Source: Anthopleura xanthogrammica (Eukaryota > Cnidaria > Anthozoa > Actiniaria > Actiniidae). From it: DNA of 64,000 nucleotides. Every line of letters starts with the position of its first letter. Position 1 is the stretch's first letter. This document shows positions 50,430 to 59,400 of the stretch, piece after piece. The stretch spans positions 15,828,332-15,892,331 of the forward strand of contig OZ025210.1 of assembly GCA_964019055.1 (NCBI GenBank), read 5' to 3'. The position numbers and the translations under genes were made by a program. Below the pieces are notes generated by a model. The model did not search any database, was not told the DNA's origin, and was given only the letters and a program-made list of their open reading frames with translations.

Positions 50430-53400
50430 ATGGTTACAGGGCTAGACAGTGGTAGCTACATTTTTACAGCCATTCTGTTGATGCTACTCGACACGAGAAC
50501 AGTTGGTGAGTTTGTATGCAGGACAACTAAATCTACACAACTAGATAAGGTCAGATGACATATGCGCGTTTCAGTAGACAAACGACAGCAACGAATATTA
50601 ATCACTTATTGCTGCACCGGAAACCACATTTGTAACATGCAAACTATATGTGCTGTGGACATGTGACCGTGTTCCTTTCTACATTACGTCTGTTACTACT
50701 ACTGATGGTATAGGGAGATTATAATAATCGATTAGAAGAGCAGCGAGCAAGAAAGCTAAATATAATGTCAACATGGATCGAAAGTTGATCTCAGTGTTTC
50801 ACTTTTAGAATAATACGCTCACAAACAAGTAGATTAGTTGTAACAATTTTGAATAAAGTCTCTACAAATGTTGTTTGATAGTTGAAGAACACTTTTGTGA
50901 TGAAATATTGGCATAAAATTGTGTTTTTGAGGGGTCAGTTTTGAGCGGTTTGAAAATTTGCTTTGCTCTCCCTATGTGTATATTATGGGAAGGTATGAAA
51001 CAGCGCCTCAAAATTTTTACACCGACCCTTACTTTGAGCTCCATATCTCCACAACAACAAACGAATAGGAAAATGTAGCCCTAAAAATCAATATTCCAAT
51101 ACATTTCCTTTAATTTGAAGTTCTAGATTATTTTTTTTGTCCACACGATGCCGAGAAATAATTTTTTGAAATTTGAAAAGCAAGCCGTGGATATGCGCGG
51201 GAATTCAATACAGCCAAAAATCACGAAAAATATTCGGCGAAAAATACAAAACATACACGTAGTAGGGAGGGGACAGGCGAATGTTACCGGAAATAAGACC
51301 GGACTTTCGGTCGCATTACGCATTCAAAAGCATTAAATAATTTGAGTCTTTCTGAAAGCATGTTTTCAAACCATATGAAATTTGAATAGATCACTCACTG
51401 AAGCTAATGACGTCAAAACCCACTAATTCTACGCTTGGGCTACGAGTGGTTAATCATGGATGTATTTGAAAATATTTTAACGTTCCAAAATAAGTTCCAA
51501 ATGGTATTCAAACAAAAGACTTTCCGTGTTCTCTCAGATTCTTAAACTATAACTAATTAGTCAGTACTCTATGGCAATCTAGTACGTAGGTTATTCATTT
51601 GTACTGCAATCCAAATTGATTGTTTTAATGTATCAATTAAGCAAAAATTAGAAAACGTTGCTTTGCTGCAGAACTGGCTAACATGATAAAAGGGAAAGTC
51701 ACAGAATGAAAGAATGTTTCTCTTTCCTTTATATCTGTATAAAATTTGGAGGTGGGATTGTTTTGCTTTGGCGAGGGGTTGTCACTGTTCATTTCCGAAT
51801 ATACGGATTTGTCTGTCAATAAATTTTGATGACACCATGGATTGTTCTTAGGGACGGACCATTAAATAATTGATGGGAAGTTGCAAGAACGTTATTTTTT
51901 TTCATCATGACCTTGTACGATATTTTTTGAACTAGTATGGAATCAGTAATATTGTTAATCACACAGAGGGCAAAATTACTGATTGATCAATCAAGGACGG
52001 CTTTTAGGCAAAATGTGAATTGACGACTGATCATGTAAAAGAAAACAATATGTAAAATTTTAATTTATTTAACTGCCTTCTTGGAACCCGCACTGACTAT
52101 TTCTACTGAAAGAGATGATAACTTTTACTATTTTAGTCATTGAAAACTGAACATTAGAGTCCGAATTCTGTTCTAATTTATTCTATAGGTCTGATGTTGA
52201 ATCTAAGTATGCATTATCAGGGACCGTAGATCGTAATTGTTTATTGGGAAGAAGGCTAACGATCGCAACCCCCACCTTTCTCCCCCCCCCCCCCCTCCCC
52301 GCCCCCCATCAATTATCTAATGGTCCGCCCCTTAGCAAAGGTAATGACTATACCATAACCATGACTTGTGTCTTCTTGTAAATTTCATCGAATGAAAGAG
52401 TTAATGTGTTAGACGCAAGAGATTTTGGGATTGCGAGGGGGCAGTAGTAGAGAAATGAGAGTTGACCAACAATGGATCTATTGTTCATTCGGCGCCGGTC
52501 TAATTTTCGGGGGGAGGGGAGGGGTGGTTCAGGTCCAGCTATCACGAAAAGATGGACCGACCGCCTGTACAAAAATTCCGATCGAAATCAGGGGGTATTA
52601 AGACAGGGTGTGTGTTTTTAAGACAAAATTGAAATTCCTTTGTTTGAGCAACAGGTAGTTTGAAGGATAAAGTTATGAATTTGTCATCTACAATGATGTG
52701 ACGGTAAACGTATACTCCGTAGAAGAGAAAGAGTCCGAAAGATGTTCTTGCCCGATGAAATTTATGTACTCTACGAAAAATTAAGAATATGATGATTATT
52801 GTATTTATTTTATTATGGTCTTTTGTTTAAACAGCTGGCGATTTGAAGAAAGTCGTGTTTTGAATAAATTAAAGTCGATAAACCTTCGTTTTCGTTCTGG
52901 AAATTTCTGTTACACTGACAAATGTTTTATTACTTAAACAGTAAAGTGAACATTATCGTTTCACACGGAAAAATCTTTTGTTCCAGAGCGTTTATTCAAG
53001 ATAATAACTACACAGACAAGTCTTGAAAACATGTTTTATTGTTCATCGTATACTGTGTAAACATATTGTCAAAGTAGGCTGGATACAGCAAACATGAACG
53101 GCGGTAAATGTTTTTGATTTGCATAGTTCATTCCAGTAAAAATCATCACGAACTAAAGCTTTTCCCACTTGGGTATTGACTTTGCGATCGCTCTCAACCG
53201 TCATAGCCACTTAAAAAAAAATGTTTCATACAAGCATAGGAGGAATATGAGAGTTTTATTCTTCGTCTATCTCTTCAGGTTTTTGAGTTATAACAAGAGG
53301 TTTTAACGTATTCGATTTTAAAGAAAGGGTATGCATTGAATCACAGTCTTTGCAACGATAAAACATTTGTTTTGTATTTTTGGCATTAATAGCAAATGCG

Positions 53401-56400
53401 TTTGAGCAAACGTCACAAACGACTAATTCGTTTTGAGGACTGTGATACGCTTCATGCCAACAGCAATTCGGACATTGTGCCACTAATATCTTTGAAAACG
53501 ATTTCGGTTCTTGACAAACGTAACACCCTCTTTCTTCTTCTTCTTCGTCCTCACTCTCCGATTCTGAGTCCTCTTGCTCCTTACTGTCATTTTCCTCTTG
53601 GGATTCCTCAGTTTCGTTGTTACTTTCAGTTTCACTATCACTAGCATCCGTATCATAGTCATCCTCTGGCTGCCTAGTAACCAGATCTGCCAATAGCATT
53701 TTGTTACGAATAAGATTCTTCTCCAAATCAAGCTCAGCCAATCCATTGGTAAAAGTTTTGAGCCCTCTTGGGGCCCTAACATCTGGGTTGTAAGGCAGTA
53801 AAGCATATTCAATCAACTCTTTCATGTTGGTTGGAATTCTCCGCTGGTGATGAGTCATTTCTCCATGGGAATTCCAATACAAGATATCTTTCGATGCTAC
53901 CATACTATGAAGTAGATCCTGTGCTTTTTGTCGCGGTATGCTTTTAGGAAGTTGTCGTACCATTCGATTGATCTCATTCTCATCCGATTTTGAAAACTGC
54001 TCCTCCTCATCAGAGGAATCTTCGCTCAGCTCGGGTTCTGTAGATTCGTCTACTGAAACTCTTCTTCTCTTCATGATGAAATGAAGTGAAATGAAGTGAA
54101 ATGAAGGTCTTGGAGGTCTTGGAGGTTTGGCCGTGCTCTTTATAGCAGAAAAAGACTGAGAGCGCTCATTAGAGGAGGTAAGACCTCTCCCACGAAGCCT
54201 TCACCTTTTTGGACCAGAATTTTTTTCTTGGTTTTGAATGGTACTGATGCATGAGCTAACGCTCTTATATTATCCTTGTGTGGCCTCAATCTTTCCTTTT
54301 GTCCTAGTGATATCGGAATTGTTCCTTGTAACAAATTATGGCATACTTCACTCATTACATGAACTTGTTCGGGAGTGGCAGTTGCAAGTAGATTCTTCCT
54401 TTGAGGTTCGGGACAGTGGGCTAAAAGATGCAAATAGCCAAAATTATCACGAAGCAATTGACTCATGTTTACTCCACTAAAGATGCATTGAAATGAGCGT
54501 TCCAAAGTTATACTTATGTACTTATAGTCACGCTACTAACAGCCGGATACCATTGCTATCGATAGTCAGGTAGCCCAGCTATTGATAGCCTAGCTATCGA
54601 TAGCCAGATACCATGGCTATCGATAGCCAGATACTATAGCTATCGATAGCCAGATAGCCCAGCTATTGTTGGCCAGCTATCGATAGCCAGATGCCATGGC
54701 TATCGATAGCCAGATACTATAGCTATCGATAACCAGATACCATTGCTATCGATAGCCAGATAGCCCAGCTATCGATAGCCAGATACCATGGCTATCGATA
54801 GCCGGATACTATAGCTATCGATAGCCAGATACCATAGCTATCGATAGCCAGATATCCTCGCTATCGATAGCCAGAAAGCCCAGCTATCGATAGCCAGAAT
54901 GCCAGATACCCTAGCTATCGATAGCCAGATAGCTTGATAGTCAAGCTATTGATAGCCTGTTGATAGCCTATTTATCGATAGCCAGATACCAAGATACCCT
55001 AGCTATTGATAGCCTAGCTATCGATAGCCAGATAGCTTGAAAGCCAAGCTATTGATAGCCGGATAGCTTCCTGATAGCCTAGCGTGATAGCTACGTTCTT
55101 ATCAGTCTGCTTAACTCATGCTTAAATAGGCTTGCAACCTTCCACTTATTTTCATTACTGAGTAGACTCGAGATGGCTCGGACGTGTTCTTTATGTCAGA
55201 AATCAGTTCAAAATTTATCATCCCACTTGAGTAGGGTCCACAGAATGAATGGTCCAGAACGCACATTTTGGTTTCAGCAAGGGAAAATATTCAAAGACGG
55301 TAACCATCTTTCTCAAAACACTGCCTCTCAGATAGGAAGCGGTCAAACAGTTCAATGTGCTAGATTTCAACTGCTGCATCCATTTACTGCTTTAGTAGCT
55401 GGAATGACTGGATCTGGTAAAACGGTTTGGGTTCAGAATCTGCTTAAGCACGCAACACAAGTTATAAGTCCGCCACCGCAGCGTATTGTATGGAGTTACT
55501 CACAATGGCAGCCAACTTACGACTACATGATGAAAACCATTCCCAGGATCGAGTTTGTGAAAGGCATACCCCATGATATTGACGAAGATGGCTTCTTCGA
55601 CCCTAGGATCAATAATGTGATTGTGATTGACGATCAAATGACAGAGACGTCCAACGACAAAAGAATCATGAATTTATTTACCAAGGGCTCTCATCATCGG
55701 AACCTCAGTGTCATTTTCCTGATGCAGAATCTTTACTTTCAAGGAAAAATCATGCGCACTCTGAGTCTAAATGCGGCATATCTTGTTCTATTCAAAAACC
55801 CAAGAGACAAGCTACAAATGATGACGCTGGGAAAACAAATGTATCCAGGCAAGTCAGAACAGTTCATTCAAAAGTACGAAGCGGCTGTACAACGACCTTA
55901 TGGATATCTTTTCGTGGACCTTAAACCCAACACACCAGAAGAATGCAGACTTCGAACTAACGTTCTCCCCGATGATCAACCTGTTTCTAAGACGAACCCA
56001 CCCACAACAATATCACAGTATGGTGGACAATCAGATGTCACGCAATCTATTGCTAACTATTTCGAGCGTCAAAGCTATTTGCAACTACCTATATTAAAAA
56101 CAATACAGAATTTAGAGGAGCAGATGACTAACATTCTAAGCGAACCCAATCTCCCCACAGAACTAAGAATGAAAGAATATTCGCCACTCTACAATCGATA
56201 TCTCGCTTTACAACAACAGATTCAAAGTGGTTCGCCCCACAGTTCAAGGCTAGGAACGGTGCAAACCCCACAAGCACCACCATCAGCTAATCCCAGTCTT
56301 CCCACCAGTCTGAAATCTCCAGAAAATGTTTCTTCAACGAGACTCACCAGTGATAGTGGCTACGTAACCCCCAAAACTAAAACGCCTTCTTTCCTACAAC

Positions 56401-59400
56401 GACTAACATCGAAAATAAGAACTCCTACTCTTGAACTCAGCAGAGCGGGAGCTTCAGCTTCAACGGGGGTACCTTCTACACCATTAAGAACCATAACTAG
56501 TCTTGATCAACCCTCTTCTACCACCTCGTTCAGCACCCCCAAAACACAATTCCCACCACCTCCGCCTGATTTTCTACCCACTCCCCCTACAAGTAAAGGA
56601 AACCCCGTGAAGTGGATTAGCTATCAAGATTCAGACAAATATCATAATAAAATCTTAAAACCTGCGCGACGTTCAGAACGATTGAGAGCGATCGCAAAGT
56701 CAATACCCAAGTGGGAAAAGCTTTAGTTCGTGATGATTTTTACTGGAATGAACTATGCAAATCAAAAACATTTACCGCCGTTCATGTTTGCTGTATCCAG
56801 CCTACTTTGACAATATGTTTACACAGTATACGATGAACAATAAAACATGTTTTCAAGACTTGTCTGTGTAGTTATTATCTTGAATAAACGCTCTGGAACA
56901 AAAGATTTTTCCGTGTGAAACGATAATGTTCACTTTACTGTTTAAGTAATAAAACATTTGTCAGTGTAACAGAAATTTCCAGAACGAAAACGAAGGTTTA
57001 TCGACTTTAATTTATTCAAAACACGACTTTCTTCAAATCGCCAGCTGTTTAAACAAAAGACCATAATAAAATAAATACAATAATCATCATATTCTTAATT
57101 TTTCGTAGAGTACATAAATTTCATCGGGCAAGAACATCTTTCGGACTCTTTCTCTTCTACGGAGTATACGTTTACCGTCACATCATTGTAGATGACAAAT
57201 TCATAACTTTATCCTTCAAACCACCTGTTGCTCAAACAAAGGAATTTCAATTTTGTCTTAAAAACACACACCCTGTCTCAACACCTCCTGATTTCGATCG
57301 GAATTTTTGTACAGGCGGTCGATCCATCTTTTCGTGATAGCTGGACCTGAACCACCCCTCCCCTCCCCCCGAAAATTAGACCGGCGCCGAAAGAACAATA
57401 GATCCATTGTTGGTCAACTCTCATTTCTCTACTACTGGGGGCAAACAGTGCAAGTAGCTAGAAAGGAATGTAGCTCGGTTAATTAACAATTAAATTGATT
57501 GATAACAAATTAAATTATCCAATTTTGTGAGACAGTAAGAAAATAAACCGCTTACGTTGGGTAACGTAAGGAGCAACTGTTTATTTTCACATTTTATGGT
57601 AATCTTGTAGCTATTCTACTCTCATTCTCGCTCTCATTTTTGCTTGTATTCCATATTTCACTTTTCCTATAATGGTCTAGTATTTATGATGATTACAGTG
57701 TCACTCTCATAAATATATTTTCCATTATACAGAGGGAAAAGTTGTGTTAACTAACTTCCCATCAAGAAGAATTGATGCATTCGCCGGAGAAACAGTGAAA
57801 TTCAACTGGAACTACACTGTTGGCGACAAGAACATGGACTTTGGATATTATGCCTCGTCACCAGTGTGGTATTATCATAACGCTGATGGTACAAGGGCGG
57901 CCATAGTAGTTGATGATGGGCTGCATGATTGGAAGTGGACCATAAGTAGAAGTACATGTCCGCCAAGGCTGCTCTACCCTACCGTTCGCGTTAGTAAAGA
58001 GTCAGTCGCTACTTTAGTCATTTCTAACGTTACCAAGAGTGACAGTGGATGGTATGAAATATATCTGGCGCTAAGAATAGCCCCGGCAATCACTGACAGA
58101 GTGGAACTTGTCGTTACAGGTAATTTGCGACAGATTGAAACGATTCTTTCTTGAATCAACAGGTTGAATAAAACTTTGGATCGATTTGGAGCTTGTTTGA
58201 ATGATTTACTGATTGGATCAAATGAATGTTTATATAGGAAGGTAGACTGAATAAGTGAATGAGTGAATCGATGGATACATGGTTATATGGAAGATAAATT
58301 ACAAGCTTAATGCTTATACATTACACTTATTTGCTGTCAGATAAAATGGTTCGTTTTACGAAAGTGCCCCCGAGTAAGTTGTTTGTTGCAAAAGGTAAAG
58401 CAGTGCGTTTTGAATGGGAATACACCTACGATAACCGTAATATCGAGTTCCATCCAGAATCTCATGTGTGGGCCTATATCAACCAAAACAACCAATGGGT
58501 TACCATAGCAACCGAAAAGAGGGATCAGTCTTGGCCAGCGGTCATAAATACGACAACATGTCCTGCAAGGTTGCTAAATCCTATTCGAGTCAGTATCGAG
58601 CAGCCAGCTACTCTGGTTATTTCAAATGTAACTGAAGCTGATAATGGGAAGTATGGATGCAGATTGAGGTTACAAAGAGAATTTCCAATAAACAGTACAT
58701 CTATACTGATTGTGACAGGTGAGTATTTGCCTTTTGATTGTGTAATACAGACCACTCGTGGTATGCACATTGCTTGGTTTCACTGGACGTCTTTACTTTG
58801 CCTTCTCATGCAAGATATTCCAGTTAGCATGAATCACAAGTTTTCAAATTAATTATTCTCCAAATCTAACAGAACAAATAACATGATGATCGATTTTTGA
58901 CTACGGTCTGGAGAAGATACTTAGACTTAAACACTATTTAATTAGCTGATTGATGTGCAACAATTGTAAGAGTACTAGTGTATTTATATTATTTCTAGAT
59001 TATCCAAAGCTTTTCTTATGGACATTGAAGACGTCAAAGATAGTGCAAGAAGGATCTGATGTAACCATTAATTGCAGCGCAAATGGTTCTCCAGTACCTA
59101 TTGTAACCTGGACGAAAATTGCACGAAAAAAAATGCTAATGATCTCTAGAAATATAGGTTGGAGTTTGATGAAAATCAAGGAAATGAAGAGAAACGAAGG
59201 TGGGACTTATGAGTGCCAGGCAAATAACAACCCAAATGAGCCTCCTGTGACTGCAAGAATTAACATCGCGGTGATGTGTAAGTACAACGGCATTGTCATT
59301 GTCATTATCATTGTTGTTCTCATTGTCATCGTATTTTTGAGTTTGAGATATTTCATTATCTTTTAAGATTTCAAGAACTCTTCGATTCTTCTGGACAAAA

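What the first reader, a model, noticed from the sequence alone, without database searches (positions are those of the whole stretch)
52443..57436. A 5-kb Polinton-like element reduced to a packaging ATPase and two small proteins
The sequence shows AG-starting inverted repeats of about 758 bp and a perfect 6-bp target duplication (GGGGGC), which match Polinton/Maverick integration. It also has three fully open genes and no polymerase, integrase, protease or capsid gene. A quarter-size element that keeps an intact A32-type ATPase is unexpected for a random deletion derivative, since packaging should be useless without capsid genes. It could be a satellite packaged by a helper Polinton or adintovirus, or a distinct lineage. 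The open frames suggest recent activity or selection.
Basis: partly seen in the sequence, partly recalled or inferred. Interest (0 to 1): 0.9.

Follow-up and report, generated by a model that had tools for sequence, protein, structure and literature searches.

The report
Polinton satellite carrying its own motor
A 5-kb mobile DNA element in an anemone-like animal genome lacks the genes to copy, insert or coat itself, yet keeps a DNA-packaging motor gene beside a possible private landing site; its relatives in the same genome have ends that match larger virus-like elements, so it may be a satellite riding in other elements' particles.

Summary
Window 52443-57436 is a 4,994-bp element with 758-bp inverted repeats (7 mismatches), AGTAGTAG ends, a perfect 6-bp duplication (GGGGGC), three open genes, and no polymerase, integrase, protease or capsid relative. 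It is not a lone deletion product: an intact 4,971-bp copy exists, and the 17-kb copy with the same ends is the same element with two nested insertions. Three more divergent families (5.7-6.1 kb) keep the three genes in the same layout. Their ATPases split from large-element ATPases (support 0.999) and are under purifying selection between families. In 4 of 4 families the outer 171-431 bp match a larger element holding the putative capsid gene, while the families' own outer ends do not match each other. All 22 small loci read have a tandem array upstream of the ATPase; the ATPase's zinc finger follows array type rather than the rest of the protein. Best reading: satellites moved in trans, with a self-specific packaging motor. 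Movement in trans is well supported; packaging is inferred and untested.

The parts
52437..52442 (.). left target-site duplication GGGGGC
57437..57442 (.). right target-site duplication GGGGGC
52443..53200 (+). left terminal inverted repeat, starts AGTAGTAG; its outer 240 bp (52443-52682) match the ends of the large elements at C18 and C3
56679..57436 (-). right terminal inverted repeat, 7 mismatches to the left one over 758 bp; overlaps the last codons of the ATPase
53256..54074 (-). P2, 272 aa: alpha/beta domain (about 29-134), acidic linker, zinc-ribbon-like Cys pairs; domain weakly related to the C-terminal part of ORF261/268 of large elements
54140..54466 (-). P3, 108 aa, modelled as all-helical; 39% identical to the P3 protein next to the ATPase in the 11.3-kb element
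54546..55090 (.). tandem array of palindromic units (GCTAT[C/T]GATAGC, mostly 23-bp period) between the divergent P3 and ATPase genes
55173..56726 (+). ATPase, 517 aa, Pox_A32/FtsK-like packaging ATPase with a fused C-terminal extension
55173..55298 (+). codons 1-42 of the ATPase: C2H2-type zinc finger (by eye; Pfam zf-C2H2 is listed for some relatives) whose type follows the array type across families
56088..56237 (+). ATPase residues about 306-355: segment related to the N-terminal part of ORF261/268 of large elements

Best explanation
It is a member of a lineage of satellite elements of Polintons/adintovirus-like elements. Shown: a recurrent three-gene unit of 5.0-6.1 kb with AGTAG termini, mostly with 6-bp duplications, whose termini match those of larger elements; no recognisable gene in it could copy or insert it. 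Inferred with good support: a protein-primed PolB and an rve integrase of larger elements act on it in trans through the shared termini. Inferred, untested: its own ATPase, with P3 and P2 as partners, loads its DNA into capsids made by the larger element, and the ATPase's zinc finger recognises the array next to its gene as a private packaging site, so that the satellite competes with the helper's own ATPase for particles.
For: Recurrence: intact 4,971-bp copy, 93.4% identical over the whole length, with another duplication, ATTTTA; type C copies of 5,675, 5,675 and 5,677 bp, each with its own perfect duplication; type B copy of 6,051 bp with TTCTTT on both sides; type A2 copy of 5,682 bp. Termini shared with larger elements holding the putative capsid gene in 4 of 4 families: 240 bp at 79-89% with the C18 and C3 elements; 431 bp at 100% with three 11.3-kb elements; 171 bp at 87% with C9:11085354-11099193; 248 bp at 91% with C4:11276168-11288308; capsid-gene positions. 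Genes and termini have different histories: small-element ATPases split from large-element ones with support 0.999, whereas the outer 220 bp of the four small families do not match each other (one 19-bp match among 6 pairs) and do match the partners read. Selection: ATPase dN/dS 0.13-0.16 between three families. Motor specificity: 22 of 22 loci read have an array upstream of the ATPase; the array motifs are absent from the large-element loci read; zinc-finger type follows array type in two discordant cases.
Against: No particle, extrachromosomal DNA or expression was tested. Two scans of viral contigs found no relative. Array and zinc-finger codons are adjacent, so one recombination tract can carry both without any binding; the second discordant case is mild (core 86% and 83% to L039 and window against 78% to L040). 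Large elements are not free of repeats near the ATPase: the 11.3-kb one has 2.5 copies of an 84-bp unit at its ATPase start, C18 short repeats. The putative capsid protein has no match in Pfam, PDB sequences or PHROGs; its identity rests on gene position and recall. The 11.3-kb partner itself shows no PolB, so the polymerase source for type C is unknown. Window-versus-C2 dN/dS is 0.46 (ATPase), 0.48 (P2) and 1.4 (P3, 6 changes). P2 and P3 have no PDB match at E 0.001. Database relatives inside the small-element branch may lie in elements of any size.
Confidence: 0.55

Rival explanations
1. Regulatory or interference satellite: the ATPase zinc finger, P2 and the array control transcription or replication, for example as an autorepressor or as a block on the larger elements, and the ATPase no longer packages DNA.
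For: The array sits in the divergent promoter region between P3 and ATPase; P2 is acidic with conserved cysteine pairs. Co-variation of finger and array fits an operator as well as a packaging site.
Against: The ATPase core, not the finger, is the most conserved part (90-94% within the three closer families), and the element keeps P3, the neighbour of the packaging ATPase in large elements.
Confidence: 0.22
2. One segment of a divided (multipartite) virus-like element: polymerase, capsid and small modules are spread over elements with common ends and cooperate.
For: Small and 11.3-kb elements share 431 identical terminal bp, and neither shows PolB.
Against: Each of the three large partners whose ORFs I listed (C3b, C9, C18) has its own ATPase, P3 and ORF261/268, so the small genes are duplicates, not complements; C18 carries the whole gene set by itself.
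Confidence: 0.13
3. Ordinary internal-deletion derivative of a full Polinton, moved in trans, with genes kept by chance.
For: The genes are related to one contiguous block of the large elements; short derivatives without the three full genes exist here too (C21 2.75 kb; C21 3.9 kb).
Against: No larger element was found with these genes in this arrangement; ATPase 38% identical to the partner's; purifying selection between families; four families with the same layout.
Confidence: 0.05
4. Host-domesticated ATPase gene that happens to lie between repeats.
For: Open frame with purifying selection between families.
Against: Several insertion sites with fresh 6-bp duplications and near-identical copies.
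Confidence: 0.02

Closest known systems
Polinton/Maverick, adintovirus-like elements (C18 and C9 elements of the same genome as yardstick)
   Same: AG-starting inverted repeats, 6-bp duplication, homologous ATPase, P3 and parts of ORF261/268
   Different: no PolB, integrase, protease or capsid gene found; about a third to a half of the size; rearranged genes; ATPase on a separate branch; palindromic array
Polintons that lost their capsid genes (PMC4028283, passages seen)
   Same: element without capsid gene in a host genome
   Different: there, nine elements without capsid gene had also lost protease and ATPase; here the ATPase is kept while PolB and integrase are lost
Phage satellites such as PICIs (passages in PMC6431247; search listing; packaging redirection by a small terminase recalled)
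   Same: small element, own packaging-related gene beside a possible own site, apparent dependence on a larger element
   Different: animal genome; carries a whole packaging ATPase; helper dependence not demonstrated
Virophages and transpovirons (recalled)
   Same: small linear elements depending on larger viruses
   Different: virophages have their own capsid gene; transpovirons depend on giant viruses and are not known to me to carry this module

Membership tests
Polinton/Maverick (autonomous; defining list recalled and from PMC4028283 passages) | AG-starting inverted repeats and 6-bp duplication | tested here: met
Polinton/Maverick (autonomous) | packaging ATPase | tested here: met
   Pox_A32 just above cut-off; 38% to the 11.3-kb element's ATPase
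Polinton/Maverick (autonomous) | protein-primed PolB | tested here: not met
   tblastn with C18 PolB: no match in the element
Polinton/Maverick (autonomous) | rve integrase | tested here: not met
   tblastn with C9 integrase (rve + chromo): no match
Polinton/Maverick (autonomous) | capsid, penton and protease genes | tested here: not met
   no match with the putative proteins of the C9 element; the capsid and penton names are recalled
Simple deletion derivative of a Polinton | internal DNA contiguous with that of a longer element with the same ends | tested here: not met
   only the terminal 240 bp align to C18, C3b and C3c; the 17-kb C3 copy is a nested-insertion copy
Satellite of a larger element | cis-acting ends shared with a helper | tested here: met
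   shared termini in 4 of 4 families; enzyme action itself not tested
Capsid-hijacking satellite (PICI-like) | its DNA is found in the helper's particles | not testable with these tools
   two scans of viral contigs empty, weak evidence either way
Capsid-hijacking satellite (PICI-like) | own packaging-specificity protein with own recognition site | tested here: inconclusive
   zinc finger follows array type in two discordant cases, but the two are adjacent

The most novel reading that the evidence does not exclude
Animal genomes harbour a lineage of satellites that pirate capsids of Polintons/adintoviruses with a complete, self-specific packaging motor, whose zinc finger and cognate DNA array are exchanged between lineages as a specificity module, and which repeatedly adopt the termini of whichever larger element currently replicates.
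Probability: 0.4. Interest if true: 0.93.

Novelty: new variant of a known kind. Interest (0 to 1): 0.85.

Why it matters
Whether Polintons of animals make particles is a long-standing question (recalled). A lineage that keeps only a packaging module under selection would be hard to explain unless particles are made, and it gives simple tests: look for 5-6 kb protected DNA, and ask whether each zinc finger binds its own array. It would also extend packaging-redirecting satellites, known from phages, to virus-like elements of animals, and offer a natural set of matched ATPase/site pairs for studying how this ATPase class recognises DNA.

Tried and rejected
Rejected: the 17.1-kb element with 95% identical ends (C3:5261007-5278121) as the parent; it is the same 5-kb element broken by a Ty3/gypsy-type insertion and a second insertion with repetitive frames but no recognised gene. 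Rejected: the 6.9-kb copy C5:13871997-13878868 as a longer form; it too has inserts at two places. Led nowhere: PHROGs search of the three proteins; PDB sequence search of the ATPase alone and as an alignment; Foldseek of the P2 and P3 models against the PDB, no hit at E 0.001; two scans of viral contigs; the Pfam PolB model over the genome, which did not list the C18 polymerase, so the C18 protein itself was used. Considered but not claimed: that the small elements are half the size of the 11.3-kb ones because of headful packaging; that PolB and capsid genes lie on separate elements genome-wide (one search scored only 38 of 178 candidates). The ends of the L039 (C21) copy were not resolved; its sister copy on C1 was used. 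The L041 element's flanks are AGGTTT/GGTTTT, not a perfect duplication. C11 copy: no duplication; C5:13871997 copy: one mismatch in six. C12 11.2-kb and the right end of one C7 copy: end motif not found in the pieces fetched. The integrase search of the genome did not complete.

Literature: no paper describing packaging-ATPase-only Polinton satellites surfaced in searches (listings; long lists were cut to 15-25). Passages were seen of PMC11071296, PMC11071308, PMC6431247 and PMC4028283. Two founding papers, PMC1450207 and PMC8502044, are not held, so nothing can be said beyond this open library.
Full report
1. The observation. The element lies at 52443-57436, as described: 758-bp inverted repeats with 7 mismatches, ends AGTAGTAG, GGGGGC on both sides. 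It holds three open frames: P2 (272 aa, -), P3 (108 aa from its first ATG, -) and the ATPase (517 aa, +). The ATPase reaches Pox_A32 just above the curated cut-off. With proteins of larger elements from the same genome as queries, PolB, integrase, penton-like, pVI-like, putative capsid and protease-like proteins have no match in the element. Between P3 and the ATPase lies a palindromic array, 18 forward copies of GCTAT[C/T]GATAGC, 32 strand matches against 0 in 100 shuffles.

2. Host. The window is part of a 290-Mb genome in 125 contigs. The named protein relatives listed are from sea anemones (Actinostola, Exaiptasia, Actinia) and the coral Oculina, plus one contig filed under a bacterial MAG. 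The species was not identified.

3. Copies with the same ends. Searching the genome with the 758-bp repeat gave 30 matches. The C2 copy (14036586-14041556, 4,971 bp) aligns end to end at 93.4%, has open frames and the duplication ATTTTA. The 17.1-kb copy on C3 looks at first like a parent, but the whole window element is present in it in three blocks, split by two inserts: one holds gag- and pol-like frames of a Ty3/gypsy-type retroelement (recognised by eye), the other repetitive frames. The C5:13871997 copy also has inserts at two places. C11 (4.0 kb), C21 (2.75 kb), C7 and C19 copies are deleted or interrupted forms. So the 5-kb form is the unit, not the remainder of a longer form.

4. The larger partners. 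The C18 element (712427-728056, duplication TTCAAC) shares only the outer 240 bp with the window repeat: 89% on its right end, 79% on its left. It carries integrase, penton-like, pVI-like, putative capsid, protease-like, ORF268, P3, ATPase and a 1,209-aa PolB frame, all open, and a retroelement insertion. The two C3 elements of 17.6 kb have the same ends (87-89%); the 15-bp flanks read are identical, so I count them as one insertion. PolB is named because relatives 69% identical to it pass the PF03175 cut-off, although C18 itself did not appear in that list and hits only endonuclease VII families by hmmscan. The integrase of the C9 partner has rve and chromo domains, as described for adintoviruses in PMC11071296 (passages). 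The protease match is just under its cut-off. The capsid, penton and pVI names are recalled from Polinton gene order; Pfam was empty for the capsid and penton proteins, PHROGs for penton and pVI and without significant hit for the capsid, and PDB sequences were empty for the capsid.

5. Other families of the small element. Protein searches gave 84, 55 and 58 matching stretches for ATPase, P2 and P3 (lower bounds). Three more families were read. Type C (L040, C8): 5,675 bp, repeats about 1.17 kb at 99.8%; two further copies of 5,675 and 5,677 bp; duplications GTCGAC, CAGGGA, AACGGA. Type B: C1 copy of 6,051 bp, duplication TTCTTT. Type A2 (L041, C2:11195374-11201055): 5,682 bp, with two extra ORFs, one weakly like an ORF of the 11.3-kb element; its flanks are not a perfect duplication. 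L039, L040 and L041 all have P2 and P3 on one strand and the ATPase on the other, in the same order.

6. Termini follow larger elements. The outer 431 bp of type C are 100% identical (rounded) at both ends of 11.3-kb elements on C9, C5 and C100, each with its own duplication. The C9 one was read in two pieces: integrase, penton-like, pVI-like, putative capsid, protease-like, ORF261, P3, ATPase, no PolB. Outside repeat-derived pieces, the small type C element and the 11.3-kb element share no DNA match at E 1e-5. Type B ends match C9:11085354-11099193 at 87% over 171 bp. Type A2 ends match C4:11276168-11288308 at 91% over 248 bp. Both intervals contain a relative of the putative capsid protein. 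So 4 of 4 families have such a partner; the C4 and C9:11085354 elements were not read, only located. Compared directly, the outer 220 bp of the four small families give one 19-bp match in 6 pairs, while window-C18/C3b and L040-C9 align over their whole length. Deeper in, repeats of types C and B do share a stretch (L040 bp 200-342 of the element, 92-96%). The ATPase cores of window, L039, L040 and L041 are 67-94% identical.

7. A separate branch under selection. In a tree of ATPase cores (38 sequences: 16 of this genome, 22 database relatives picked by me from the 120 listed of 323), the 7 small-element ATPases and the 22 database relatives split from the 9 large or unclassified ones with support 0.999 (FastTree). 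The element size of the database relatives is unknown, and L041 groups with some of them (0.96) rather than with window, L039 and L040, so it is not shown that every member of this branch is a small element. NG86 dN/dS between families is 0.13-0.16 for the ATPase, 0.23 for P2 (the one between-family pair with measurable dS) and 0.07-0.27 for P3; the other pairs, L041's included, are saturated. Between window and C2 it is 0.46, 0.48 and 1.4, on 31, 15 and 6 changes, so recent selection is not shown.

8. What was kept. P3 is 39% identical to the P3 of the 11.3-kb element. ATPase residues 306-402 match the N-terminal part of ORF261 (33%, E 2e-11). P2 weakly matches the C-terminal part of ORF261 (22%, E 1e-4; 25%, E 0.004 to ORF268). 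The small element thus holds relatives of one block, ATPase-P3-ORF261/268, recut and reordered. This is the opposite of the pattern in PMC4028283, where nine elements without capsid gene had also lost ATPase and protease (passages).

9. Array and zinc finger. In 22 of 22 small loci read (not all of the 84 ATPase stretches were read), a tandem array lies in the 750 bp upstream of the ATPase start; many of these are close copies, so the independent families number four or five. Array and finger types go together: A (GCTATYGATAGC), B (GTAGATTCTAC), C (GAGCC-rich). The motifs are absent, or at background (0-1 of a loose hexamer), in the eight large-element pieces counted; but the 11.3-kb element has 2.5 copies of an 84-bp unit at its ATPase start and C18 has short repeats there. 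Two cases go against the core. Window and L041 share the A array (68-70% over about 500 bp) and 83% of the first 42 residues, though their cores are only 67% identical; window and L039 have cores 94% identical, but fingers 38% and arrays without a match. L060 has a C-type array and a finger 83% identical to L040 over 30 residues (60% to window, 50% to L039), though its core residues 1-130 are 86% to L039, 83% to window and only 78% to L040; the rest does not separate them. P3, on the other side of the array, follows the core, not the finger (47% window-L041 against 70% window-L039). A recombination tract covering array and finger codons explains this; that the pair moves together fits recognition of the array by the finger, but adjacency alone could do it.

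10. Mechanism. Trinucleotide-repeat ends (AGTAGT) suit protein-primed initiation with sliding back, as in adenovirus (recalled). A PolB and an integrase of larger elements then account for copying and insertion in trans. The only recognisable functions that the element brings itself are those of a packaging module with its own putative site. The main rival is a regulatory or interfering role.

Noticed in passing
G000 C9:12118825-12130088 (L042, L043), C5:10889200-10900492, C100:9626-20921: A young family of 11.3-kb elements; the C9 copy has integrase, putative capsid, protease-like and ATPase genes but no PolB, and repeats of about 2.1 kb. All three have their own 6-bp duplication; the polymerase source is unknown.
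   Followed up: partly
G000 C9:11085354-11099193: A 13.8-kb element whose matches to the putative capsid protein, P3 and the ATPase C-terminal segment occur twice in opposite orientation, as if head to head.
   Followed up: no
L041:437-979 and L041:4811-5596: Two extra ORFs (180 and 261 aa) in the type A2 small element, the first 22% identical to a 187-aa ORF of the 11.3-kb element; function unknown.
   Followed up: partly
window 51847-52335: A 31-nt inverted repeat (90%) with 427 nt between the arms, CTTAGGGACGGACCATTA-like ends: looks like a separate MITE next to the element.
   Followed up: no
window 57744-59366: Consecutive ORFs with immunoglobulin-like domains by eye, just beyond the right end of the element.
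   Followed up: no
G000 C3:5668578-5686219 and C3:5511962-5529607: Two 17.6-kb Polintons with identical flanks in the 15 bp read, so probably a segmental duplication rather than two insertions.
   Followed up: no
G000 C5:12987778-12992960 and C5:13053977-13059159: Two 5,183-bp elements with type A2 ends that contain a fragment of the putative capsid gene: another kind of short element.
   Followed up: no
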